From: Candidatus Bathyarchaeota archaeon
GTDB taxonomy: Archaea > Thermoproteota > Bathyarchaeia > Bathyarchaeales > Bathycorpusculaceae
Reading direction: 5' to 3'
DNA: 64,000 bases
Assembly: GCA_026414485.1 (NCBI GenBank)
Contig: JAOAIX010000001.1
Span: 27,502 to 91,501 of the forward strand
Below, one piece after another: positions 41 through 45,005 of this stretch (position 1 is its first letter; every line of letters starts with the position of its first letter). Under the pieces are notes generated by a model. That model had not been told where the DNA came from. It ran no database searches and was given only the letters and a program-made list of their open reading frames with translations. The position numbers and the translations under genes were made by a program.

Positions 41-1639
41 ATGAGCGAAGAAATAATAGGACACGGCACATGGTATGACATGATGGCCCAGAAAGTCATC
101 CAACGGGAAAAGAAACTGGGCAGAAATCTAAGTTTAATCAGGACTGAAATGGGGTTAGGCGCTTCAGGGTTCCCCCACATCGGCAGCCTCGGCGACGCAG
201 CCCGCTCCTACGCAGTTACCCTAGCCCTCAGAAGTATGGGCTTCAACTCGGAGCTGGTAGCGTACTGCGACGACAAAGACGGTTTACGCAAGGTTCCCGC
301 AGGCTTACCTAAATCGCTGGAGAAGTATCTGGGTTTTCCGGTTTCCAGTATACCTGACCCTTTTGGGTGCCACGAAAGCTTCGGCAAGCACATGAGCTCG
401 CTTCTGCTGGACGCTTTAGACAAGTGTGGCATAGAGTACCGCTACATGTCCGCCAAAGAGGTTTACGATAAAGGCTTAATGCTCAACGAAATCCGCACAA
501 TCCTGCTCAACGCAAAGAAAGTGGGCGAAATAGTCAAAGAAGAAGTAGGCCAAGAGAGGTACACCGAGGTTTTACCATTTTTCCCTGTTTGCGAAAAGTG
601 CGGTCGCATCTACACCACCAAGTCGGTTTCCTTCGAACCCAAAACCGACAAAGTCCTCTACGCATGTGAAGGTTTAACCATCAGAAACAAACCGATCGAA
701 GGCTGTGGTCACAGAGGCGAAGCCGACATAGCCCACGGCTCAGGCAAACTAAGTTGGAAGAGTGAATTTGCAGCACGCTGGAAAGCTTTTGACATCAGGT
801 TTGAAGCCTACGGCAAAGACATTGCCGATTCTGTCCGTGTTAACGACCGTATATGCCGCGAAGTTCTGTGTTATGAACCCCCCTCACACGCAAAATACGA
901 AATGTTCCTCGACAAAAGCGGAAAGAAAATCTCCAAATCCGCAGGTAACGTTTTCACACCACAAGTCTGGTTCAAATACGGCTCCCCTCAATCACTGCTA
1001 CTGCTCATGCTAAAACGATTCGTAGGCACCCGCACCTTGGATGTCTCAGACATCCCATCATACATGAACGAACTAGACGCCCTAGAGGACATTTACTTCG
1101 GAAAAAAAGCAGTTCAAGACAAAAAAGAACTGACAAGACTACGAGGTCTATATCTCTACTGCTGGGTCATGAAACCACCTACCAAACCCAGCACCCACGT
1201 TCCCTACAATTTGCTGGCTTTTCTGGCGAAGATGGCGCCCAAAGACTGCGCTGAATCCTTCATCACAGAGAAACTGCAAAGCTACGGCTACCTCCAGAAG
1301 AGTCAACCCATAGATTCGGACTTGAAAAAACGCGTCGAATACGCATTCAACTGGATAACTGACTTTGAAGAAATCAAAGAAACCACCACAACTCTCACAG
1401 CGGAGGAGAAAAAAGCAATCGAAGCTTTAATTACAGTTTTAGAAACTGAAGAAAACCCAGACAAAATCCAAAACGCAATATTCAACGCTGCAAAGGATAA
1501 CAATCTTAAACCAGCTGCCCTCTTCAAAACTCTCTACAGCATCCTGCTAGGTGCGCCGCAAGGCCCACGCCTAGGTCCATACGTGCTGGCAATGGGTCGA
1601 CAAAACGTAATAGCAGCATTGAAACGGGCCTTGTCTTAA
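41..1639 (+). CDS. lysS: Lysyl-tRNA synthetase, class I
   Basis: Charges tRNA-Lys with lysine in the cytoplasm. The 532-residue protein has the class I signatures: a HIGH-type motif (PHIGS, about residues 45-49) and a KMSKS-type motif (KISKS, about 295-299). A Cys-rich zinc-binding part lies between them (CEKCG near 182, then a CEG and CGHRGE stretch). This is the class I LysRS of most archaea, not the class II enzyme of bacteria and eukaryotes. It appears to be a single-gene unit; the next gene is convergent. The ATG start is the first plausible one and gives the usual family length. The left edge of the window leaves only 40 bases of upstream sequence. Confidence 0.96.
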   Translation: MSEEIIGHGTWYDMMAQKVIQREKKLGRNLSLIRTEMGLGASGFPHIGSLGDAARSYAVTLALRSMGFNSELVAYCDDKDGLRKVPAGLPKSLEKYLGFPVSSIPDPFGCHESFGKHMSSLLLDALDKCGIEYRYMSAKEVYDKGLMLNEIRTILLNAKKVGEIVKEEVGQERYTEVLPFFPVCEKCGRIYTTKSVSFEPKTDKVLYACEGLTIRNKPIEGCGHRGEADIAHGSGKLSWKSEFAARWKAFDIRFEAYGKDIADSVRVNDRICREVLCYEPPSHAKYEMFLDKSGKKISKSAGNVFTPQVWFKYGSPQSLLLLMLKRFVGTRTLDVSDIPSYMNELDALEDIYFGKKAVQDKKELTRLRGLYLYCWVMKPPTKPSTHVPYNLLAFLAKMAPKDCAESFITEKLQSYGYLQKSQPIDSDLKKRVEYAFNWITDFEEIKETTTTLTAEEKKAIEALITVLETEENPDKIQNAIFNAAKDNNLKPAALFKTLYSILLGAPQGPRLGPYVLAMGRQNVIAALKRALS

Positions 1640-2847: not shown

Positions 2848-3852
2848 ATGATTTTAACTACTTTTTCTGTGTTTAATATGCCTCAAAAAGTAGCCAAAAA
2901 GGCTTCAACTTTTCGAATTCGCTTGCAAGACATTGGAACGTTACTAGGAGCAGATTACTCTATTGCTTGGGCAATAAACAATAACAGCCAAATTGTTGGA
3001 GCCTCTGGAGGTCGTGCGTTTTTATGGTCTGCTGAAGACGGTATGGTTGACATCGGAACATTACCCGGAGTCACGTCTGCTATAGCTATGGGCATAAATA
3101 ACAGGGGTGAAATAGTTGGCTCATCTGGTGGACATGCATTTCTTTGGACAGCCAAAGGTGGTATGGTGGAACTTGGTGTTCCCTACGGCTCCACATCCAG
3201 CAATGCCACCAGTATCAATGATAAAGGAGAGGTTGTCGGCTACTATAGAGTTGATGGACTCCAACGCTCGTTTATGTGGTCACCTAAGGATGGTGCTACC
3301 GACATTGGAACACTACCAGGAGAAACCATGTGTTATGCTGCAAATATTAATGACAAAGGTGAAGTAACAGGTTCTACTCATTCTACCAGTTTTCCGTTTG
3401 GACGAGCCTTTTTATGGTCAGCAAAACATGGGATGAGGGAAATCGGGATCCTTCCTGGAACAACAACAAGTGTCGGTCTCGGCATTAACAATAAGGGTCA
3501 AGTTGCCGGAATCTCTTCTGCAAAGCCTTTATCCTCAGGGAATGCCTTTATGTGGTCTGCCAAAAACGGCATGGTCGATTTAGGCGTTCAAGAAGGTGCA
3601 ATTTTTAGCGCTGCAAGAAGCATTAATGAAAAGGGACAAATTGTTGGGCACTCTGCTTACGGGAGTACCAAAACACAGCGTGCGTTTTTGTGGACCAGCG
3701 AAAAAGGATTCGTGGAATTGCCAGGATTGCCAAACTCAATGTCCAGTTATGCTTATGCTATCAACAATAAAGGACAAGCGACCGGGGCGTCACAAATTAT
3801 CCTCCCCACAGGTGGAATAACCACTCACGCAGTCATGTGGACCACGCAATAA
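2848..3852 (+). CDS. HAF-repeat protein, predicted seven-bladed beta-propeller
   Basis: Made almost wholly of seven tandem units of about 40-46 residues, each following the pattern D-I-G-T-L-P-G, then I-N-N-x-G-x-V-G, then A-F-L-W-S-A-x-x-G-M. This is the HAF repeat (named for the His/Ala/Phe core), usually annotated as a probable extracellular repeat in bacteria. Seven such units would close a seven-bladed propeller. Unlike most family members it has no convincing signal peptide from either the ATG at 2848 or the ATG at 2878. A TATA-like tract near 2817-2829 would place the transcript start close to 2850, which favours the second ATG. The gene sits alone next to a tRNA in an AT-rich stretch. 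Role unknown; ligand binding or protein scaffolding is a guess. Confidence 0.85.
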   Translation: MILTTFSVFNMPQKVAKKASTFRIRLQDIGTLLGADYSIAWAINNNSQIVGASGGRAFLWSAEDGMVDIGTLPGVTSAIAMGINNRGEIVGSSGGHAFLWTAKGGMVELGVPYGSTSSNATSINDKGEVVGYYRVDGLQRSFMWSPKDGATDIGTLPGETMCYAANINDKGEVTGSTHSTSFPFGRAFLWSAKHGMREIGILPGTTTSVGLGINNKGQVAGISSAKPLSSGNAFMWSAKNGMVDLGVQEGAIFSAARSINEKGQIVGHSAYGSTKTQRAFLWTSEKGFVELPGLPNSMSSYAYAINNKGQATGASQIILPTGGITTHAVMWTTQ

Positions 3853-4091
3853 ACCTTAATTTTCAATCTTCAATTAAGACGCTAAAACTACCAAAATACG
3901 CGGGTTTGCCTTCGCTAACTCAAAGAAGCAAGAAAACTGTTTCTCCTTGAAACCTAACGTACCCACCATAACAGCATTACCCATAGCCGGCCACATAGGG
4001 TACTTTCGACTTTTCCTTTCTGACGTTAAGCCTAGGGTAATTCTTAAATCACTTCAAAACCCCTATTACTCAGCTTTTATGAGGCTACCTT

Positions 4092-5342
4092 ATGGCAACG
4101 GATCATACCCCTCTGGCGGTGGCGCAAGCCCAACTTAACCTCGCCGCAAAAAAGTTGAATTTAGATCCTAGAATTCACAAGATCCTAAGTGAACCCAAAC
4201 GTTCCATAATAGTCAGCGTCGACATCAAGTTAGATAACTGCTCCGTGGGCGTTTTTCGGGGCATACGTGTCCAACACTGGGACGTGCGGGGACCTTTCAA
4301 AGGCGGAATCCGCTATTATCCAAACATCACCATGGATGAGGTGACGGCGTTGGCTATGTTGATGACTTGGAAATGCGCCATAGCCGACATACCATATGGA
4401 GGAGCCAAAGGCGGAGTCTGTGTAGACACAAAAAAATTAAGCAAAGGCGAACTAGAAAGACTCACCCGCCGCTATATCAGTCTAATTGTTGACTACCTCG
4501 GCCCACACCGTGACATCCCCGCACCTGATATGTACACAGACGCACAGACAATGGCATGGATAATGGACACCTACAGCCAGCTTAAAGGCTACAGTGTACC
4601 TGAATGCGTCACAGGCAAACCCGTAGAAATCGGTGGTTCAGAGGGTAGAACCGAAGCCACAGGCAAGGGCGTAATTCACTGCGTAAAAGAAGCAGCTTCA
4701 AAAATTGGCTTAAAACTGAAAGGGGCAAAAGTAGCTATCCAAGGGTTTGGCAACGTCGGCTTCCACGCAGCACAATTAGCACATGAACAGGGCTGCAAAA
4801 TCGTAGCTATCAGCGACTCTGTAGGCGGAGTTTACTCTTCTCAAGGCTTGGATCCTCAAGCTGTTTTAGTACATAAAGAAAAAACCGGCTCAGTCCAGAA
4901 CTTTAACGGCGCCACAAACATCACAAACGAGGAACTGCTCGAAACCAACTGTGACATACTCATACCCGCCGCACTTCAAAACCAGATAACCAGAAAAAAC
5001 GCAGATAAAATCCAAGCCCGCATGATCGCAGAAGCCGCCAACGGACCAACCACTCCTGAAGCAGACAAAATCCTCTCTGAAAGAGACATATGCCTAATTC
5101 CCGACATCCTCGCCAACAGCGGCGGCGTGATTGTAAGCTACTTTGAATGGGTACAAAACCTCACCCGCGAACACTGGACACTAGAAGAGGTAAACAAGAA
5201 ACTGGAAGCCAAAATGACCAAGGCATTCAACGACGTTTACCTCATCACCCAAAAAGAAGAAAGTGACATGCGCACCGCCGCCCTCACGCTCGGAGTGGGT
5301 AGAGTGGCTGATGCCATAAAAACACTAGGACTGTGGCCATGA
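4092..5342 (+). CDS. gdhA: Glutamate dehydrogenase
   Basis: Interconverts glutamate and 2-oxoglutarate plus ammonia, linking nitrogen and carbon metabolism. The 416 residues match the hexameric Glu/Leu/Phe/Val dehydrogenase family. The dimerisation and substrate domain has the lysine motif PYGGAKGGV (about 100-108). The Rossmann domain has GFGNVG (about 219-224), with an Asp (AISDS) at the end of the second strand, which leans towards NAD rather than NADP; cofactor choice is not certain. The start is supported by GAGG 7 bases upstream of the ATG. It appears to be a single-gene unit. Leucine or phenylalanine dehydrogenase is less likely given the close match to archaeal GDH. Confidence 0.95.
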   Translation: MATDHTPLAVAQAQLNLAAKKLNLDPRIHKILSEPKRSIIVSVDIKLDNCSVGVFRGIRVQHWDVRGPFKGGIRYYPNITMDEVTALAMLMTWKCAIADIPYGGAKGGVCVDTKKLSKGELERLTRRYISLIVDYLGPHRDIPAPDMYTDAQTMAWIMDTYSQLKGYSVPECVTGKPVEIGGSEGRTEATGKGVIHCVKEAASKIGLKLKGAKVAIQGFGNVGFHAAQLAHEQGCKIVAISDSVGGVYSSQGLDPQAVLVHKEKTGSVQNFNGATNITNEELLETNCDILIPAALQNQITRKNADKIQARMIAEAANGPTTPEADKILSERDICLIPDILANSGGVIVSYFEWVQNLTREHWTLEEVNKKLEAKMTKAFNDVYLITQKEESDMRTAALTLGVGRVADAIKTLGLWP

Positions 5343-5547
5343 CACAACCTAAATAATTGCCGCAAAAATCTAAAATTACGGTACTATTTCTCTGCAGTTT
5401 TTGTTTAAGTGCACCTTTCTTATTGTTAAACAGAAAAATAAACATCCAAATTGCCTTAGTATACATGTACCTCCGCGCCTAGTATAGTCAAAAACAACAA
5501 AAGAGAATAAGACGTCTAGACGCCGTTTTGCCGTGTTCAGAGTAACC

Positions 5548-5558
5548 AAATACTTTTA
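5548..5558 (+). promoter_or_regulatory. Candidate TATA element for the GINS-mcm operon
   Basis: The A/T-rich AAATACTTTTA lies about 66 bases before the proposed GINS start. It would place transcription start near 5580, with a leader of some 35 bases containing the binding site GAGGGAG at 5602-5608. The match is weak and rests on spacing. Confidence 0.4.
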
Positions 5559-5613
5559 ACAGTTATTCACATACTCTTCAACTCCACAACAGCATATATC
5601 TGAGGGAGAGTAA

Positions 5614-6177
5614 ACGCCAACACCCAAACTTGCAAACCTCGACTTCCAATTCGAAAACTCAACAGTAAAAGTCATAGCCAACAAAAACCACCCGCAAATT
5701 AACCTTGCAGGCTTAACAATTGGGCCATTCCAAGAAGGCAACGAATACGACCTCTACTACTGGGTAGCCAAAGAACTCTTAGACACAGGAATAGTGCACT
5801 TCCGACAAGAAGACATCTTAGATGCAACTAAACTCTACAAAATCCAGTGGAAAGAACGAGTACAAATCGCAGGGCAAATCAGTGAACTGCCTGAAGATTT
5901 CTACCCGCAACTCCGAAGATACCTCCAAACAGCAAAAACCCAAATCACCAAACAACCCGATCCAGCCAAAGTCCAAGACTACCAAAAAATCAAGCAGACC
6001 GCAAATGACATCGTCAATTCCCGACTCAAAAAAATCGTCACTCTCTCTTCAGGACCCACCCACATTGACCAAATAATAAAAAAACTTACACCTGAAGAAA
6101 AACAAATCTTCAACCAACTCGCAAAGATCATTCACGACTGGAGAAGCCGCATCCTTAACCATGAAACCGAGGAATAA
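5614..6177 (+). CDS. GINS replication factor subunit (Gins23 type), apparent ACG start
   Basis: A GINS subunit binds MCM and Cdc45/GAN to form the replicative helicase complex. It lies 5 bases before mcm, as gins23 does in Crenarchaeota, which is the reason for the Gins23 call. The only usual start in frame is GTG at 5794, which would give 127 residues. The frame, however, stays open and clearly coding for 60 codons upstream, with GINS-like sequence (strand-rich N-terminal part, then DLYYWVAKELLD). It ends at TAA 5611-5613. Directly after that TAA is ACG at 5614, preceded by GAGGGAG with 5-base spacing. Starting there gives 187 residues, close to the other GINS in this window (181). No ATG, GTG or TTG occurs in this extension. 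Either ACG is the initiator or the base is a mutation or assembly error. Confidence 0.8.
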   Translation, partial: TPTPKLANLDFQFENSTVKVIANKNHPQINLAGLTIGPFQEGNEYDLYYWVAKELLDTGIVHFRQEDILDATKLYKIQWKERVQIAGQISELPEDFYPQLRRYLQTAKTQITKQPDPAKVQDYQKIKQTANDIVNSRLKKIVTLSSGPTHIDQIIKKLTPEEKQIFNQLAKIIHDWRSRILNHETEE

Positions 6178-6182
6178 AAAAT

Positions 6183-8219
6183 ATGGCGCGAAAGCAAGAA
6201 ACCATAGACCCTCAAGAACGCTTCTTAGACTTCTTCAAAAAAGAAAGGTACCGCCAAAAAATCAGCCAAATGGCCATACAAGGTAAAGAATCCATAACAG
6301 TAGAATTCGAAGACCTCTTCGCGTTCGACCAGACCCTCGCCGAAGCCCTATTAGACAAACCTGAACAGTTTCTTCAATACGCAAACAACGCCGCTTACGC
6401 CCAACTCGGAATTGAAGACAGCGAATACGCCCAAAAAATCGACAAAGTCACAGTCCGCATAACTAAACTCCTCGGACACGAACAACTCCGCAAACTCGGC
6501 AGCAAACAAATGGGCAAACTCGTCATGATAGAAGCCATAGTTGTCCGAGCCACACCCGTCAGACCAATGGTCATGAGAGCAGCATTCAAATGTAAACGAT
6601 GCGGCACCATAAACCAAGTCGAACAAAAAGGCCAATTTCTCAAAGCACCAACCGTCTGCGCAGGACCAGACTGCGGAAAAGACGGCCCCTTCGACTTTGT
6701 ACAGGAAGAATCCACGTTTATAGACAGCCAAGACCTCAGACTCCAAGAACGCCCAGAAGACCTGCCACCAGGCCAGTTACCCCGCACCCTCGCTGCAAAA
6801 CTTGTCGGCGAAGACGTCGTCGACGTCGCCAGACCAGGAGACCACGTCTCCATAGTCGGCATAGTCCAAGCATTCGCACCCTCAAAACCCGGCATCGGCA
6901 AACTCCGCACCTTCGTTTTACAACTCGACGCCAACAGCGTCGAAGTTTTAGGCAAAGAACCAGAAACCTCCCCCCCAACACCGGAAGAGCAAGAAAAAAT
7001 ATTCGCGCTCGCCAAAGACCCACAAGTCCACCGTAAACTCACAAACTCAATCGCGCCATCAATATATGGCTACGACCACATCAAAGAAGCCATACTCTAC
7101 CTGCTCTTCGGAGGCGTCTCCAAAACCCTTCCAGACGTCAACGTCAGAGGCGAAATGAACGCCCTCCTCATCGGCGACCCAGGCACAGCAAAATCACAAC
7201 TCCTACAATACGTCGCACGTATAGCCCCACGAGGACTCTACACCTCAGGTAGAGGAACAACAGCCGCTGGCCTCACAGCCGCAGTCATAAGAGAAAAAGG
7301 CGGCTCCATGAGTCTTGAGGCAGGAGCACTCGTGCTAGCCGACAAAGGAATCGCCTGCATCGACGAGATGGATAAAATGCGCCCAGAAGACCGCGTTGCC
7401 ATACACGAAGCCATGGAACAGCACACAGTCTCCGTAGCTAAAGGCGGCATCGTCGCCACCTTAAACGCACGCACCGCCGTCCTAGCAGCAGCAAACCCTG
7501 CACTGGGCAGATACGAACCCCACCGGACAGTCGCCGAAAACATCAGCTTACCCGTTACTATCCTTTCCAGATTCGACATAATTTTTGTACTGCGAGACGT
7601 TCCAAACAAAGACGCCGACGGCAAAATGTCACAACACATCCTAGAGATCCACAGACGCGGCAGAACCCCTGTAGAAGCACCTGTGGACGCCGAACTGCTA
7701 CGTAAGTATATAAGCTACGCCAAAACAATCCAGCCTGAACTTAGCGACGATGCCCTCAACAAGCTTCGAGACTTCTATTTAGCCATGCGCGCCGCCAGCG
7801 AATCCGAAGGTTCACCAGTAGCTATAACGGCTCGCCAACTTGAGTCTTTAGTTCGAGTCGCGGAAGCCAGAGCGCGGGCAGCGCTGCGCAAAGAAGTCAC
7901 TGGCGAAGATGCAGACGCCGCAATAGCCTTGATGAAACGGTCGCTAGAAGAAGTAGGCATAGACATGTCGTCGTACAAGATGGACATCGACATTATCATG
8001 ACCGGCAAACCGAAAAGCGTCCGAGACAAGCTTCAACTTGTTCTGTCAACAGTTATAGCCATGGAAAAAGAAACAGGCACAGTTGAACGAGACGCCCTAG
8101 TTACAGAGTTAGAGGAGAAACATAAACTGTCCAGAGCAGAAATCGAACGCATGATAGGGCAGCTTCTAAAAGAAGGCACACTTTATGAACCTGGAGAGGG
8201 ACGACTAAAGAAAACCTAA
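6183..8219 (+). CDS. mcm: Replicative DNA helicase MCM
   Basis: An ATP-driven 3'-5' helicase that unwinds DNA at the fork as a hexamer. The N-terminal domain carries a zinc site (CKRC near 139, then a second Cys pair about 27 residues on) and the OB fold. The AAA+ domain has Walker A GDPGTAKS (about 331-338), Walker B CIDEMD (about 392-397) and arginine finger SRFD (about 462). A winged-helix tail follows from about 600. The 678 residues are normal for archaeal MCM. It starts 5 bases after the GINS stop, so the two are almost certainly cotranscribed. No intein is present. Confidence 0.98.
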   Translation: MARKQETIDPQERFLDFFKKERYRQKISQMAIQGKESITVEFEDLFAFDQTLAEALLDKPEQFLQYANNAAYAQLGIEDSEYAQKIDKVTVRITKLLGHEQLRKLGSKQMGKLVMIEAIVVRATPVRPMVMRAAFKCKRCGTINQVEQKGQFLKAPTVCAGPDCGKDGPFDFVQEESTFIDSQDLRLQERPEDLPPGQLPRTLAAKLVGEDVVDVARPGDHVSIVGIVQAFAPSKPGIGKLRTFVLQLDANSVEVLGKEPETSPPTPEEQEKIFALAKDPQVHRKLTNSIAPSIYGYDHIKEAILYLLFGGVSKTLPDVNVRGEMNALLIGDPGTAKSQLLQYVARIAPRGLYTSGRGTTAAGLTAAVIREKGGSMSLEAGALVLADKGIACIDEMDKMRPEDRVAIHEAMEQHTVSVAKGGIVATLNARTAVLAAANPALGRYEPHRTVAENISLPVTILSRFDIIFVLRDVPNKDADGKMSQHILEIHRRGRTPVEAPVDAELLRKYISYAKTIQPELSDDALNKLRDFYLAMRAASESEGSPVAITARQLESLVRVAEARARAALRKEVTGEDADAAIALMKRSLEEVGIDMSSYKMDIDIIMTGKPKSVRDKLQLVLSTVIAMEKETGTVERDALVTELEEKHKLSRAEIERMIGQLLKEGTLYEPGEGRLKKT

Positions 8220-8402: not shown

Positions 8403-9176
8403 CTAAGAAATATAGGTTGTTTTCTTGTCTTCTTCTTTGCGGATTTCCTCAGCCTGTAAAACTCTCTGCTGCTCAATTTTCTGCAAACGCGCCATCATCT
8501 TTTCTGCTTTCGCTATGTCCTCATCCAGACCTTTTAGATCCAACTCAACGTTAAACATTGCGCATAAAACCTCTAGAACACTTTTTGCAGAAAGCGGATC
8601 AGGTAAATAACCCCGTGTCTCCCCCAGCAGGCAGAGTGCATTAATTTTTTGGAAGCGAGCTAAACCCAAAATCAACCCTGCGGTTCCCACTATTGGGCTT
8701 CCAGAAGGACTCAACGTGGCGCCTGCACGCAAGGCTTTGTCAAGAATTTCCTGGTTTGTACCTGCAACTATCACTTTTGGTTTATCTTTGATTTCCATGC
8801 GGTATCCGCCGATGGTGACGATTGTTTGCACGTTATGCTTCTTGCTGTATTCAACCATGCAGTCAGCAATTTCATATTGCCCTTCGATGGTTTGGCTTTG
8901 GCTGTCCCCTGTGAATAACAACAGATCATTCGCGCCGCCAGTGTTCTTTGCGTAGTAAAACGTTCCACGTAGTAATCTAACTTTGCCCTTTTTGTTGACA
9001 AGCACAAAATATGGAAAATGTGGCGAATAAAGATACCCAACTTTCTGAGCTTTAAGCCGCTTTATAAGGTAGCGGATTGCTATTTTGCCAACTAAACCTA
9101 AACCTGGTAAACCCTCTATGAGAACAGGGTTATTCGCTTGGATTTTGTTGATTTCTTTAACGTACGTTTCCTTCAT
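8403..9176 (-). CDS. PAC2 family protein, proteasome assembly chaperone-like
   Basis: The 257-residue protein belongs to the PAC2 family, whose archaeal members (PbaB type) bind 20S proteasome alpha subunits or act as ATP-independent chaperones. N-terminal signature: VLIEGLPGLGLVGKIA (about 19-34). The middle carries TIGGY and GETRGYLPDP motifs. The C-terminal 40 residues are charged and predicted coiled coil. It is the last gene of the L44e, S27e, aIF2-alpha, Nop10, PAC2 operon, a layout conserved in many archaea. Its ATG overlaps the Nop10 stop (ATGA), implying translational coupling. Confidence 0.9.
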   Translation of the reverse strand: MKETYVKEINKIQANNPVLIEGLPGLGLVGKIAIRYLIKRLKAQKVGYLYSPHFPYFVLVNKKGKVRLLRGTFYYAKNTGGANDLLLFTGDSQSQTIEGQYEIADCMVEYSKKHNVQTIVTIGGYRMEIKDKPKVIVAGTNQEILDKALRAGATLSPSGSPIVGTAGLILGLARFQKINALCLLGETRGYLPDPLSAKSVLEVLCAMFNVELDLKGLDEDIAKAEKMMARLQKIEQQRVLQAEEIRKEEDKKTTYIS

Positions 9177-9343
9177 TTCGTCTGTTGCTCCTTTCTAAGA
9201 GCTAAACGATATTTGAGATATTTGTCGTCAGGCGAAAACTTCGGAGGATGAGGACTGTGAACGGCGCCGCCACAGTGTGGGCATTTATCTGTTTTCAAAG
9301 TGTAGGCGCTACATCTCTCGCATCGACGCAGTAACCACACCAC
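9173..9343 (-). CDS. nop10: H/ACA RNP protein Nop10
   Basis: A 56-codon gene. Nop10 is a core part of the H/ACA ribonucleoprotein (with Cbf5, Gar1 and L7Ae) that makes pseudouridine in rRNA. The protein reads MVWLLRRCERCSAYTLK at the N terminus. It has two zinc-binding pairs (CERC and CPHC) and the family motif HSPHPPKFSPDD, then a basic tail. The GTG start overlaps the TAG of aIF2-alpha by one base, and its TGA overlaps the ATG of the PAC2 gene. Both overlaps, and the known aIF2-alpha/Nop10/PAC2 order in archaea, support the call. Confidence 0.93.
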   Translation of the reverse strand: MVWLLRRCERCSAYTLKTDKCPHCGGAVHSPHPPKFSPDDKYLKYRLALRKEQQTK

Positions 9344-10131
9344 TATTTCTCCCTTCTAAAGGAGCCTTGCCCGCCTGCTTTAGTTATAAATGTGACTACG
9401 TTTTGACCAACTTTTTGCAGCACATCTTCGGCGCGTTTGTAGTTCTCAGCTGAAACTTCAATGCTGTATTTCGGCGCGGCTATTACGTAGAATTTCACAG
9501 TGGCGTCTTTGGATTTCTCTGTCTTTTTGGCGTTGGCAAATGCTTCTTGTATACATTTTACACCGTTCGGTTTCATGCAGCGAATTTCAAGGACACCTTT
9601 TACCTTGACCATCTTTAGTTGGATGCGACCCTGCGCTACTTCCGCAAACGCCTGCGCCACCTCTTGAGTTATGCCTAGTTTTGTTAGAACTTCAGGTCCC
9701 TCAAGAGCTGTTTTTTCTAGTCCCTCATACAAACCGTATTTTTCCTCTATCAAAACACCTGCTTTCTGGTAAACTTCGTCAGGCGTAATTTTGAGTTTTT
9801 CTGCCACACCTTTCAAAAGCGCTTCAGCTTTACGTTCTTTTTTCCAAGACTTTATCTTTTCAATTTTCTCTCGCTTTGTCACGCGCCTAAGCGAAAGATC
9901 CACATGCCCTTTTTCTTGGTCGACCCTAAGAACTTTAAGCACAACTTTTTGGTTCTCACGAACAAAATCGCGGATGTTCCTTATCCACGAAGAAGAAATT
10001 TCGGAGACGTGAAGCAAGCCTCTTTTTTCGTACTCATCAAGTTTTGCATATGCACCATAATCAGTAACCGTTTCTATCGTAGCAATGACTAAGTCGCCAA
10101 CTTCAGGCCACTGAGGCTTCCTTTCCGCCAT
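9343..10131 (-). CDS. eif2a: Translation initiation factor aIF2 subunit alpha
   Basis: The alpha subunit of the heterotrimer that delivers initiator Met-tRNA to the small ribosomal subunit. The N-terminal S1/OB domain (about 8-85) has the typical VTDYGAYAKLDEY and GLLHVSEIS stretches. A helical middle domain and the C-terminal alpha/beta domain that binds the gamma subunit follow. The 262 residues are the usual length. The position corresponding to the regulatory Ser51 loop of the eukaryotic factor holds ISSSWIRNIRD. It sits between S27e and Nop10 in the conserved translation operon. Confidence 0.96.
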   Translation of the reverse strand: MAERKPQWPEVGDLVIATIETVTDYGAYAKLDEYEKRGLLHVSEISSSWIRNIRDFVRENQKVVLKVLRVDQEKGHVDLSLRRVTKREKIEKIKSWKKERKAEALLKGVAEKLKITPDEVYQKAGVLIEEKYGLYEGLEKTALEGPEVLTKLGITQEVAQAFAEVAQGRIQLKMVKVKGVLEIRCMKPNGVKCIQEAFANAKKTEKSKDATVKFYVIAAPKYSIEVSAENYKRAEDVLQKVGQNVVTFITKAGGQGSFRREK

Positions 10132-10160
10132 CTCCTTTACGCTTCCACTTTTCTAACTTG

Positions 10161-10358
10161 TTATTCTAGAACTGCCTGTATGTCCCCTTTGATTTTCGCT
10201 TTTCCACCTGTTGGTTCAGCTAACACAACACTGCAAACGTTGCAAGTAACTTTGTTAACGGCGTTGCTGAATATCAGCTGCTCGTTGCCACATTTTGGGC
10301 ACTTAACACGTAGAAAAGTGCTTCTTGGTTTGGGAACTAGCTTATTCCATTCACTCAT
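10161..10358 (-). CDS. rps27e: Small ribosomal subunit protein S27e
   Basis: A 65-residue zinc-ribbon ribosomal protein. The four metal ligands are visible as CPKCG (about 20-24) and CNVC (about 39-42). N-terminal basic and C-terminal AEPTGGKAKIKG match the family. It lies between L44e (16-base gap) and aIF2-alpha (29-base gap) in the same leftward operon. Confidence 0.95.
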   Translation of the reverse strand: MSEWNKLVPKPRSTFLRVKCPKCGNEQLIFSNAVNKVTCNVCSVVLAEPTGGKAKIKGDIQAVLE

Positions 10359-10374
10359 TGCGACTTCACCTAAA

Positions 10375-10674
10375 TTACCCTATTGTCAACTTTCTGAGCC
10401 GTATGCCCTCTTTATGCCTCATGTAATTGCAAACCTTGCATTTGAGGCGGAGTGTTTGCTTCTTAGTAGTTTTTGCGAATTCTTTTTGCAGAGGATATTT
10501 TTGTCCACCGTAACCTTCTTTTTCACGTTTGTGGTGGCGTTCACCCTTAGCTAGTGCCCTTCGTTTCCCAGCTTTATATAAAGATACTGCGTGAACTTGA
10601 TGTGATTTACACTTGGGGCAGTACGTTGTTACTTCTTTAGGAACATTCACGTTTATCACACTACCAGACTCCAT
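10375..10674 (-). CDS. rpl44e: Large ribosomal subunit protein L44e
   Basis: A 99-residue zinc-ribbon protein of the large subunit near the E site. It has CPKC (about 19-22) and CKVC (about 79-82) as metal ligands, the basic GKRRALAKGERHHKREKEGYGGQ stretch in part, and the C-terminal GIRLRKL. It is the first gene of the leftward translation operon. The upstream TATA element is so close that the message may be leaderless or have a very short leader. Confidence 0.96.
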   Translation of the reverse strand: MESGSVINVNVPKEVTTYCPKCKSHQVHAVSLYKAGKRRALAKGERHHKREKEGYGGQKYPLQKEFAKTTKKQTLRLKCKVCNYMRHKEGIRLRKLTIG

Positions 10675-12282: not shown

Positions 12283-12699
12283 TCATTTAGATTGAGCTTG
12301 ACTCTTGTGCCATTCAACTGCAGCGTTGAAATCCATGAGGTTAGCAAGTTCTGCCTGTAAGTTTGTGGGTTTAACTACAAGCAACCAACCCTTCATAAAG
12401 GGGTCTTCATTAAGTAACTCAGGCTTGGATGAAACTTCGCCGTTGACTTCCTCGATTCTACCACTAAGAGGCGCAACAAGGTCAGAAACGGCTTTAACAG
12501 ACTCAACGGTACCATATGGCTCGTTCTGTTTAATTTCGCCGCCGGCGCTGGGTAACTCAGCGTAGACAATTTCACGCAATGATTTCTGAGCATAATCAGT
12601 TATGCCAATGCGAACTTTGTCGCCTTCAATTTTGACCCATTCAAAATCTTTAGAGAAGTAAAGTCCTTCAGGTACTTCATATCCCTCTACATTTACCAT
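12283..12699 (-). CDS. gcvH: Lipoyl carrier protein, glycine cleavage H-protein family
   Basis: The H-protein carries an aminomethyl or other group on a lipoyl arm. The 138 residues form the lipoyl (biotinyl/lipoyl hammerhead) domain, with the modification motif ESVKAVSD placing the lipoylated lysine at residue 69. No P- or T-protein genes are in this window. Its only operon partner is the FAD disulfide reductase downstream. It may serve glycine cleavage with genes elsewhere, or act as a stand-alone lipoate-binding carrier as seen in some sulfur systems. The sequence looks like true GcvH. Confidence 0.92.
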   Translation of the reverse strand: MVNVEGYEVPEGLYFSKDFEWVKIEGDKVRIGITDYAQKSLREIVYAELPSAGGEIKQNEPYGTVESVKAVSDLVAPLSGRIEEVNGEVSSKPELLNEDPFMKGWLLVVKPTNLQAELANLMDFNAAVEWHKSQAQSK

Positions 12700-12945
12700 T
12701 TAATATGCCACCTTTTCTGGTGAATACTGTGGATTACATTGATGCTTAAAAGTCTTCACAAAAATATAAAATGTTAACCATGGATTAAGTAAAGCCCCCA
12801 CTTCAATATTATAACTGCCGACAATTATATCACGGCGTGACTCCACAATATCCTCCCAGGCATAATACACTTAAGAAAGAAATAGAAGGGTAAGCAGAGC
12901 CTGATTTTGGGCACAAATATTATTTTTAACAATAAACACCTGAAC

Positions 12946-14031
12946 TCAACGTTCTCTTTTACCTTGAATGAATTCCTCGGTCCACTGTCTTGCTTGTGAA
13001 TCAGGTACTTGAATGGGAGGATGCTTGAAGGCGTACGCAGAAATACTGAGAAGTGCGCCTGCAACTTTGCGGTCTAACGCAATTTTAGCTGCCCGTATCA
13101 AATCTATAACGACGCCTGCGCTGTTGGGTGAATCTTCAACTTCAAGTTTGACGCTTATGTTTAATGGCCGGTCACCAAATTTGCGGCCTTTAAGCGATAT
13201 GTAGCAGATTTTTTTGTTCCTCAAAAATGGCACGTAATCTGAAGGACCAATACGTGTAGGAAGCTCATAAGGCACCAAACTTGTGACTGCCTCAGTTTTG
13301 CTAATACGCTTGGACTTCAGTCGGTTTTCCACAGTCATATTTTGGAAGTCAGTGTCTCCACCGAGGTTAAGCTGATAAGTTTCATCCACAATCACACCCC
13401 GATCCAAACAAAGTCGCACAAGATTACGATGCAAAATAGTTGCCCCCACTTGACTTTTTATATCATCTCCAAGCACGGGTAAACCAGCCGACTCAAATTT
13501 CTTGCTCCACACCTGCGTTTTATCTGAAGCGATAAATTCAGGCATACAATTTACAAAGGCGCAACCCGCGTCTATGGCAGCTTGGGCATAAAACTGTGTA
13601 GCTTCGTGACTGCCCACAGGTAAATAGTTAACAAGCACTTGCGCCTTAGTTGCCTTAAGAATTTTAACGACGTTAGCCTTGTCATAGTTGCTGTCGTCAT
13701 AAACATTAAAAGCCTCACGCATATGTGGCGCTACGCCGTCTAGAATAGGCGCAGGCGAAACCACTACGCCCAATTTTGGTACATCCGCGAATTTCTCGCA
13801 GCAATTGGGCGCGGTGAAGATGGCTTCAGAGAGGTCTTTGCCAATTTTATTCTTGTTGACTTCAAAGGCAGCAACAAATTTTATGTCTCGGATATGGTAG
13901 CCACCGAAATTAACATGCATAAGTCCAGGCACGGCCGTGTCTTCTTTTGCATCCTTATAATACTGAGTTCCCTGTATGAGGGCTGACGCGCTGTTGCCCA
14001 CCCCCACAAGTGCTACGCGAATTTCTGCCAA
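12946..14031 (-). CDS. ino1: Myo-inositol-1-phosphate synthase
   Basis: Converts glucose 6-phosphate to L-myo-inositol 1-phosphate using NAD, the first step to inositol head groups of archaeal ether lipids and to inositol solutes. The 361 residues have the N-terminal Rossmann motif GVGNSASALIQG (about 10-21), the family stretch VNYLPVGS (about 134-141), and the conserved GDDIKSQVGAT (about 191-201), which contributes active-site lysine. The ATG gives a normal archaeal length. Together with the CDP-alcohol phosphatidyltransferase at 35717-36322 it suggests archaetidylinositol lipids. It appears to be transcribed alone; a TATA-like element (AAAAAGTTATAGATT on the minus strand) lies near 14070-14085. 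Confidence 0.95.
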   Translation of the reverse strand: MAEIRVALVGVGNSASALIQGTQYYKDAKEDTAVPGLMHVNFGGYHIRDIKFVAAFEVNKNKIGKDLSEAIFTAPNCCEKFADVPKLGVVVSPAPILDGVAPHMREAFNVYDDSNYDKANVVKILKATKAQVLVNYLPVGSHEATQFYAQAAIDAGCAFVNCMPEFIASDKTQVWSKKFESAGLPVLGDDIKSQVGATILHRNLVRLCLDRGVIVDETYQLNLGGDTDFQNMTVENRLKSKRISKTEAVTSLVPYELPTRIGPSDYVPFLRNKKICYISLKGRKFGDRPLNISVKLEVEDSPNSAGVVIDLIRAAKIALDRKVAGALLSISAYAFKHPPIQVPDSQARQWTEEFIQGKRER

Positions 14032-43224: not shown

Positions 43225-44457
43225 GTGTCTTCTAGAGATTTTGTGTATGAAAAATTTCGTGAATTCTACAGTAGTTCCTCATTTAAAATCCCTGCACCTG
43301 TAGGTTTTAGTCAACGTGAATTTGCTTTCCTTCTATTCAAAGAAAGGATAATGGCCCGGCACAAAGGTTTTGCAAGTCCTCCCCTTTTGGGTAGTTTTAT
43401 ACGGCAGCATGTACCATCAGACGTTTATTATTCATGCGCCTACTACGAAACTCCCGAAGCTGAAATGGATAAGAAAGGCTGGGTAGGTGCCGATTTAGTT
43501 TTCGACATAGACGCTGACCACATACCCACTAGATGTAATAAAATTCATGATTCATGGGTGTGCAGCAATAAATCATGCGGTTTCGGCGGCAAAGGTATCA
43601 CTCCAGAAGCTTGTCCTATCTGCGGGGGAGTAAAATTTGACGTTAAAAGTTGGCCCTGTGATGTGTGCATCGACACGACACGAGCAGAAGTGCGAAAACT
43701 TGTGGATATGTTGGAGAACGATTTTGGATTTGCAGCGTCTGAAATCCACACCTTTTTTTCAGGTCACCGCGGTTTTCACGTGCAGATTGAAAATGAGTCA
43801 ATTCGCGATTTAGATGCAATGGGGCGCCGAGAAATTATAGATTACGTCTCAGGCACAGGTTTGGCGGTGTTTCAGAAAAAAACGCGGCAGCCAAAGCAGA
43901 AGACAGGCGTAAAGATTTTCAAATTGAGTGATTATGGATGGCATCGTCGTCTCAAAAATGGTATACGACGATTTCTTTTAAACGCGACGAAGGATGATTT
44001 AAAGGAAATTGGGGTAAAGAGCCGAATTGACGTTATACTGCAGAATCGGGAGCGCATCTTACAGCGTTGCCTCGAAGAAAACAGGTGGGATGCTGTGAAA
44101 GGAGTTGGTTTTGAAACGTGGATTAAAATTGCTGAACACATACGGGAAGTGGAAGCAGCAAAAATTGACACAGTAGTCACTAGTGACATACATCGTTTGA
44201 TCCGCGCAGAAAATACATTGCATGGCAAAACCGGTTTATTAAAGATCAAGTTTCCTGTTTCACAGCTAGATGAGTTTGATCCTTTCTCGGAAGCAGTAGC
44301 TTTTAAAGAGGGCACGGCAAAAGTTTTGGTCTCGGACGCACCTGAATTCAGGTTAGCTGGGCAAACGTTTGGGCCCTTCCAAAACAAGAGCGTGGAGTTG
44401 CCGACTGCAGCGGCTATATTGCTCATCTGTAAAGGTCGAGCAGAAGTGGTGACTTAG
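43225..44457 (+). CDS. priS: DNA primase small (catalytic) subunit PriS
   Basis: The primer-synthesising subunit. The 410 residues have the catalytic metal motif DLVFDIDADH (about 92-101), then an extended Cys-rich zinc insert (CSNKSCGFGG near 112-121, CPICGG near 131, CDVC near 143) and the nucleotide-contacting SGHRGFHVQI (about 179-188). GTG start behind AGGAG. The downstream gins15 begins 2 bases after its stop, so they are coupled. Confidence 0.95.
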   Translation: MSSRDFVYEKFREFYSSSSFKIPAPVGFSQREFAFLLFKERIMARHKGFASPPLLGSFIRQHVPSDVYYSCAYYETPEAEMDKKGWVGADLVFDIDADHIPTRCNKIHDSWVCSNKSCGFGGKGITPEACPICGGVKFDVKSWPCDVCIDTTRAEVRKLVDMLENDFGFAASEIHTFFSGHRGFHVQIENESIRDLDAMGRREIIDYVSGTGLAVFQKKTRQPKQKTGVKIFKLSDYGWHRRLKNGIRRFLLNATKDDLKEIGVKSRIDVILQNRERILQRCLEENRWDAVKGVGFETWIKIAEHIREVEAAKIDTVVTSDIHRLIRAENTLHGKTGLLKIKFPVSQLDEFDPFSEAVAFKEGTAKVLVSDAPEFRLAGQTFGPFQNKSVELPTAAAILLICKGRAEVVT

Positions 44458-44459
44458 GG

Positions 44460-45005
44460 ATGTATGATGAATTGTACACGGCATGGCGAGTGGAAATTGA
44501 GTACCGACAACTGAGTAGTTTACCTTCAGATTTTTACGTAAGAGTTGCTCATTACCTCAAAAAACTCAGAGAATATCAATTGTCTGAAAAGAAAAGTGTT
44601 GAGGAAAAACTTATGGAGCATGAGCTGCTCAATGTCCAACGCATGGTTGAAGAGTTGTTGCAGGTGCGTTATCAGAAGATCATGAAGAGTCTGGTTGCAG
44701 GAGATAGGGTTCCTCTGGAGTCTTTGACCGCAGAAGAAACTAGTTTGTACAACGGTGTTTTACCCTCTGCTGTAACCTACAACAAGTTCATGCAGAGTCT
44801 TCTTGGCGGTCAAGTCTCCAAAATTGAGGCGGGGTCGCCGGTGCATAAGCGAGTGACCTTACGCTTTTTGAAGCAAGTACCACAAATTATAGGGGCTGAC
44901 ATGAAAAGTTATGGTCCATTTATGGTGGAGGATGTAGCTTCGATTCCGATTGAAAATGCAAAGATTCTGGTGAAGCAAGGTTTGGCTAAACAGATAGAGT
45001 TGTAG
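44460..45005 (+). CDS. GINS replication factor subunit (Gins15/51 type)
   Basis: The second GINS in the window, 181 residues. It begins with the helical A-domain (MYDELYTAWRVEIEYRQL, then SLPSDFYVRV, similar to the SELPEDFYPQL of the other GINS) and ends with a small B-domain near 150-181 (SYGPFMVEDVASIPIENAKIL in part). A C-terminal B-domain and position after priS are the reasons to call it the Gins15 type. Its last 20 bases overlap the convergent archaeosortase gene. Confidence 0.88.
   Translation: MYDELYTAWRVEIEYRQLSSLPSDFYVRVAHYLKKLREYQLSEKKSVEEKLMEHELLNVQRMVEELLQVRYQKIMKSLVAGDRVPLESLTAEETSLYNGVLPSAVTYNKFMQSLLGGQVSKIEAGSPVHKRVTLRFLKQVPQIIGADMKSYGPFMVEDVASIPIENAKILVKQGLAKQIEL

What the first reader, a model, noticed from the sequence alone, without database searches (positions are those of the whole stretch)
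5602..5796. GINS gene of the mcm operon appears to start at ACG
The GINS frame stays coding for 60 codons upstream of GTG 5794, ending at an in-frame TAA at 5611-5613. There is no ATG, GTG or TTG in that stretch. Right after the TAA stands ACG, with GAGGGAG 5 bases upstream, and starting there gives 187 residues like the 181-residue GINS at 44460. So either ACG initiates, or one base is wrong or mutated. If real it is a rare non-standard initiator in a core replication gene.
Basis: partly seen in the sequence, partly recalled or inferred. Interest (0 to 1): 0.6.

Follow-up and report, generated by a model that had tools for sequence, protein, structure and literature searches.

The report
Archaeal replication gene starting at ACG
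In this uncultured archaeon (its nearest named relatives are Bathyarchaeota), the gene for a core DNA-replication protein, GINS23, seems to start at ACG instead of ATG, GTG or TTG, and the same gene has repeatedly acquired forbidden-looking start codons (CTG and ACG) in its relatives, so this is probably a real translation quirk rather than a sequencing error.

Summary
The frame is open from TAA 5611-5613; no ATG/GTG/TTG occurs in frame before GTG 5794, nor in any frame at 5534-5629. The gene is single-copy gins23, upstream of mcm. The GINS at 44460 is the paralogue GINS51. All six same-genus orthologues start with GTG or TTG at the position aligned with ACG. The closest shares the promoter element, the GAGG-N8-start spacing and start-Pro, so ACG 5614 occupies the true start position. 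Sampling 208 genomes of the class, 18 gins23 genes lack any canonical start within 45 codons and 22 are called non-canonical: 19 CTG, and 3 ACG in three separate families (window, G058, G195), all GAGG-N8-ACG. Controls give 1 of 385 (mcm, GINS51, PriS, three neighbours). Start codons interchange at one aligned position between related species, and non-canonical starts have stronger Shine-Dalgarno sequences. Best reading: the initiator tRNA (anticodon CAU) initiates at ACG, guided by the Shine-Dalgarno sequence, as part of a gene-specific drift towards weak start codons in gins23. A base error or strain variant in this one assembly is the main rival. No expression or peptide data exist here; why gins23 tolerates weak starts is inference.

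The parts
5546..5559 (+). CCAAATACTTTTAA, probable archaeal promoter (TATA-like) element of the gins23-mcm operon
   Evidence: Identical in the closest relative G003 (73% protein identity) in the leader alignment. Promoter function is inferred from sequence and conservation.
5602..5608 (+). Shine-Dalgarno sequence GAGGGAG; GAGG (5602-5605) ends 8 nt before ACG
   Evidence: The genome's 16S rRNA ends in GGATCACCTCCT; duplex energy -7.1 kcal/mol, average for this gene. GAGG-N8-start also in G003 (GTG), G058 (ACG) and G195 (ACG).
5611..5613 (+). In-frame stop TAA immediately before the ACG; excludes any upstream in-frame start
   Evidence: No ATG/GTG/TTG in any frame at 5534-5629.
5614..5616 (+). 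ACG, the inferred initiation codon of gins23
   Evidence: Aligned with GTG/TTG starts of all six same-genus orthologues. It is the only codon between the stop and the conserved NLDF motif that differs from ATG at one base.
5614..6177 (+). gins23 (GINS subunit, PSF2/PSF3-like: N-terminal PSF2_N domain, then Sld5 helical domain), 187 codons + stop
   Evidence: Pfam PSF2_N residues 7-55 and Sld5 77-180; matches human PSF2 chains from profile position 4; single copy in the genome.
5794..5796 (+). GTG, first canonical start codon in frame; rejected as the start because it would delete the conserved N-terminal domain
   Evidence: Codons 1-60 are conserved in all orthologues and coding by codon usage.
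6183..8219 (+). mcm, replicative helicase, starts at ATG 5 nt after the gins23 stop
   Evidence: mcm orthologues start canonically in 171 of 172 genomes.
44460..45005 (+). gins51, partner subunit, ATG start, downstream of a primase-like ORF (43225-44457, taken as PriS); used as a control, not part of the anomaly
   Evidence: Sld5 + Gins51_C domains. Canonical starts in 55 of 55 genomes. PriS assignment of the upstream ORF is from gene order and recall, not a family search.

Best explanation
The gins23 gene of this archaeon is translated from ACG 5614. The 30S subunit is positioned by the GAGGGAG Shine-Dalgarno sequence, and the initiator tRNA (anticodon CAU) accepts ACG with a mismatch at the second codon base, giving a 187-residue GINS23, presumably with an N-terminal methionine, at reduced efficiency. 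ACG is the extreme of a gene-specific trend: across this archaeal class gins23 mostly starts at weak codons (TTG, GTG) and has repeatedly moved on to CTG or ACG, while the adjacent mcm and the partner gins51 do not. Shown by sequence: the position of the start, the absence of canonical alternatives, the recurrence, the controls, the stronger Shine-Dalgarno sequences of the CTG and ACG genes. Inferred: that ACG is really used in the cell, that yield is low, and that the reason is a tolerated or selected low dose of GINS23 relative to MCM.
For: Exact reading of the locus. Alignment with GTG/TTG starts of six same-genus species; shared promoter element, GAGG-N8-start and start-Pro with the closest relative. 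Same-gene ACG starts with strong Shine-Dalgarno sequences in G058 and G195, and CTG starts in 19 genomes, among 208. In genus g70 the same aligned codon is ATG, TTG or CTG in different species. Controls 1/385 against 18/208, Fisher p = 5e-8. About 13 changes between canonical and non-canonical on a GINS tree, three separate ACG occurrences. Stronger Shine-Dalgarno pairing for CTG/ACG genes, median -9.1 against -6.9 kcal/mol, p = 2e-5. ATG fraction by one method: gins23 25%, mcm 67%, other genes about 50%.
Against: No reads, RNA, ribosome profiling or peptides. One assembly only for this species. ACG is unique in 224 kb of the genome, so it is not a habit of the organism. The window's own Shine-Dalgarno is only average (-7.1), unlike the two other ACG cases (-11.2, -11.4). 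The genomes sampled are mostly draft assemblies and not independent of each other. A review of archaeal initiation lists only AUG, GUG and UUG starts (PMC7531240).
Confidence: 0.82

Rival explanations
1. The base at 5615 is wrong in the assembly, or is a minor strain variant, and the organism has ATG there.
For: Draft assembly in 33 contigs. ACG differs from ATG by one transition. Only case in 224 kb.
Against: No same-genus orthologue has ATG at this position (GTG or TTG in all six), so one wrong base does not restore the genus pattern. Two other families show ACG at the same place with good Shine-Dalgarno spacing, and CTG starts of this gene recur in clades of independent assemblies: an error would have to hit the start codon of the same gene again and again.
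Confidence: 0.1
2. C-to-U RNA editing turns ACG into AUG before translation, as in plant chloroplasts.
For: Chloroplast rpl2, psbL and ndhD starts are made this way (PMC9845219). It would suit ACG.
Against: It would not explain the CTG starts of the same gene. I know of no mRNA C-to-U editing in archaea (recall, not tested).
Confidence: 0.02
3. Translation starts at GTG 5794 (127 residues) or at another near-cognate codon inside the N-terminal domain.
For: GTG 5794 is the first canonical codon, as most gene finders would report.
Against: Residues 1-60 form the conserved PSF2_N domain present in all orthologues and in PSF2 structures, and are under purifying selection.
Confidence: 0.03
4. A recent start-codon mutation has silenced gins23 and the gene is starting to decay.
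For: ACG is among the weak start codons in other systems (recall).
Against: It is the only gins23 in a 92% complete genome, the frame is fully intact, and 87 of 88 good-quality genomes of the order keep the gene.
Confidence: 0.03

Closest known systems
E. coli infC (IF3) with AUU start and fidelity-dependent autocontrol
   Same: An essential gene with a non-canonical start codon that limits its expression (works on infC AUU cited in PMC9845219).
   Different: gins23 does not encode an initiation factor, the codon is not fixed (ATG/GTG/TTG/CTG/ACG interchange), and no regulation has been shown.
Sporadic CUG and AUU start-codon switches in prokaryotes (Belinky et al. 2017)
   Same: Same kind of event; weak starts tend to go with stronger Shine-Dalgarno sequences (PMC5622118).
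   Different: There CUG and AUU switches were a handful in about 69,000 genes and the passages read mention no ACG; here one gene has CTG or ACG in 22 of 208 genomes.
ACG starts in chloroplast genes (edited) and ACG initiation in mammalian cells (Peabody 1987, cited in PMC9845219)
   Same: ACG in the place of the start codon.
   Different: Archaeal, Shine-Dalgarno-led, and without evidence of editing.
Archaeal gins23-mcm gene pair (Berthon et al. 2008)
   Same: Same conserved neighbourhood (PMC2643942).
   Different: That work discusses gene order; a text search found no mention of start codons.

Membership tests
Archaeal GINS23 (PSF2/PSF3-like GINS subunit) | N-terminal B-type domain followed by Sld5 helical domain | tested here: met
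   PSF2_N 7-55, at its curated cut-off (27 bits), and Sld5 77-180, above cut-off
Archaeal GINS23 (PSF2/PSF3-like GINS subunit) | Similarity to solved GINS chains | tested here: met
   Human PSF2 E = 6.5e-11, archaeal 3anw chain B E = 1.4e-5
Archaeal GINS23 (PSF2/PSF3-like GINS subunit) | Next to mcm | tested here: met
   mcm starts 5 nt after the gins23 stop
Genuine non-canonical start codon | No canonical alternative compatible with the conserved protein | tested here: met
Genuine non-canonical start codon | Aligned with orthologous start codons, with a correctly spaced Shine-Dalgarno | tested here: met
   anti-Shine-Dalgarno confirmed
Genuine non-canonical start codon | Recurs or is conserved in independent genomes | tested here: met
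   3 ACG in three families and 19 CTG calls among 208 genomes; not conserved as ACG within the genus
Genuine non-canonical start codon | N-terminal peptide or initiating ribosome at the codon | not testable with these tools
   No proteome or ribosome profiling data available
infC-like start-codon regulation | Synthesis responds to initiation fidelity factors and the response is lost with AUG | not testable with these tools
   Needs expression experiments; only a resemblance is claimed

The most novel reading that the evidence does not exclude
In this archaeal class the gins23 start codon is kept weak by selection, so that supply of the helicase activator GINS is limited and made sensitive to start-codon stringency (aIF1/aIF2 state), linking replication to translation: an infC-like control of a replication gene, in which ACG is one of several interchangeable weak states.
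Probability: 0.2. Interest if true: 0.75.

Novelty: new variant of a known kind. Interest (0 to 1): 0.52.

Why it matters
ACG is not among the start codons accepted for archaea, so gene finders miss or truncate such genes: here gins23 would lose its first domain. If confirmed, it widens the archaeal start-codon set in a core replication gene. The repeated CTG/ACG starts of gins23, absent from its complex partner gins51 and (with one doubtful exception) from its neighbour mcm, give a natural series (ATG, GTG, TTG, CTG, ACG at one aligned site) to test whether GINS dose is set at translation initiation.

Tried and rejected
Upstream start with frameshift or read-through: no start codon in any frame at 5534-5629. 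Truncated start at 5794: loses a conserved domain. Genome-wide ACG habit: no other clear case in 224 kb. An odd initiator tRNA: the tRNA at L353 has the initiator pattern (A1-U72, GGG anticodon stem, CAU anticodon, with an intron); the tRNA genes found with anticodon CGU are typed as threonine tRNAs. A first audit of all ORFs flagged many false cases from antisense shadow ORFs, reduced. In-frame TAG in gins23 of family f9 looked like recoding but is the normal terminal stop (my notebook entry on this is superseded). Literature searches for archaeal ACG or CUG starts found no precedent in the open papers held, which is weak evidence of absence.

Full report
Observation. The frame runs from TAA 5611-5613 through ACG 5614 to TAA 6177, 187 codons, and the first ATG/GTG/TTG in frame is GTG 5794. 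GAGGGAG lies at 5602-5608. No ATG, GTG or TTG occurs in any frame from 5534 to 5629, so neither an upstream start nor a frameshift offers a canonical alternative.

Identity. The protein carries PSF2_N (residues 7-55) and Sld5 (77-180), and its family profile matches human PSF2 from profile position 4 and the archaeal 3anw chain B. It is the only copy in the genome and lies 5 nt upstream of mcm: this is gins23 of the conserved gins23-mcm pair (PMC2643942). The gene at 44460 is gins51, the other subunit. The nearest named relatives are Candidatus Bathyarchaeota.

The first 60 codons are real. They are conserved in all orthologues, differ from relatives mainly at third positions, and score as coding by codon usage. 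In 224 kb of this genome no other ORF shows such a strong coding stretch before its first canonical start. A start at 5794 would delete a conserved domain.

The position of the start. Same-genus orthologues (60-73% identity) start at GTG (G001, G003) or TTG (G002, G004, G005, G006), followed by proline, and ACG-Pro of the window aligns with them. G005 and G006 also have an ATG three codons further upstream, inside the Shine-Dalgarno region. G003 shares the promoter-like CCAAATACTTTTAA and has GAGG, 8 nt, GTG; the window has GAGG, 8 nt, ACG. Between the stop and the conserved NLDF motif the only codon one base from ATG is ACG.

Not an isolated oddity. Sampling gins23 in 208 genomes of the class, 18 have no canonical codon within 45 codons upstream of the conserved motif. 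With four more (G154, G159, G164, G182), in which the only canonical codons do not fit the aligned start, the calls are 108 TTG, 54 ATG, 24 GTG, 19 CTG, 3 ACG. The ACG genes are the window, G058 (another family, AGGAGGTCCCATTC-ACG) and G195 (another order, AGGAGGTATTTTGG-ACG); all three have GAGG-N8-ACG. CTG starts dominate family f7 and genus g70 and occur alone in G109. In g70 the same aligned codon is ATG in G167, TTG in G165 and CTG in most others, which marks it as the initiation codon. G196 is uncertain (ATT or CTG; counted as CTG), and some calls rest on alignment and Shine-Dalgarno position alone.

Controls. mcm lacks a canonical start in 1 of 172 genomes; gins51, PriS, the upstream dehydrogenase and two further window genes in 0 of 55, 46, 60, 20 and 32. 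18/208 against 1/385 gives p = 5e-8. Genomes are related and the control sets are smaller subsets, so this is not a strict probability; on a GINS tree the canonical/non-canonical state changes about 13 times and ACG appears three separate times. By one start-calling method gins23 has ATG in 25%, mcm in 67%, other genes in about 50%. CTG starts also occur in a few other genes of these archaea, so CTG initiation is not exclusive to gins23.

Mechanism. The 16S rRNA ends in GGATCACCTCCT, so GAGGGAG can pair. A tRNA with the initiator pattern has anticodon CAU, so ACG would be read with a mismatch at the second base. Shine-Dalgarno pairing is stronger for CTG/ACG genes than for the rest (median -9.1 against -6.9 kcal/mol, p = 2e-5), as expected if a strong Shine-Dalgarno compensates a weak codon, a trend known for GUG/UUG genes (PMC5622118). 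The window's own is average (-7.1), so its yield may be low. In E. coli CUG gives under 1% of AUG (PMC11497404); archaeal values for ACG are unknown to me. Low GINS23 demand relative to MCM, or control through start-codon stringency, are both possible and untested.

Error or real? Reads could not be examined. A wrong base remains possible (about 0.1), but no same-genus species has ATG at this position, and the recurrence of ACG and CTG at this codon makes error unlikely. RNA editing would not explain CTG.

Novelty. Non-canonical starts are a known kind (infC AUU, rare CUG). The archaeal setting, the ACG codon, and the repeated gene-specific recurrence in gins23 are, as far as the open literature held here shows, undescribed.

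Noticed in passing
L142 (-) 542..1102; L128 (-) 12582..13166 and L135 (+) 5692..6276; L115 (-) 3515..4534: Other conserved genes in relatives G038, G050/G144 and G078 that also lack canonical starts and show CTG behind a Shine-Dalgarno-like sequence: CTG initiation may be more widely used in this archaeal class.
   Followed up: partly
L125 (-) 8509..10569: mcm of G081 has no canonical start near its conserved N-terminus; CTG or an assembly frameshift are both possible.
   Followed up: no
L353 (G000 contig C32 29929-30026): The initiator-like tRNA gene of this genome carries an intron next to its CAU anticodon.
   Followed up: partly
window 9343-10131 (-): An ORF I read as aIF2-alpha-like (S1-type N-terminus; not checked by a family search) lies close to gins23-mcm and points towards it, in line with reported archaeal linkage of replication and translation genes (PMC2643942).
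   Followed up: no
G093 contig C20 558-1047: gins51 of G093 is split into two overlapping frames, probably a frameshift error or a real frameshift.
   Followed up: no
gins23 of family f9 genomes, e.g. L128, L135, L137: In-frame TAG reported inside the match looked like stop-codon recoding; translation shows it is the ordinary terminal stop.
   Followed up: yes
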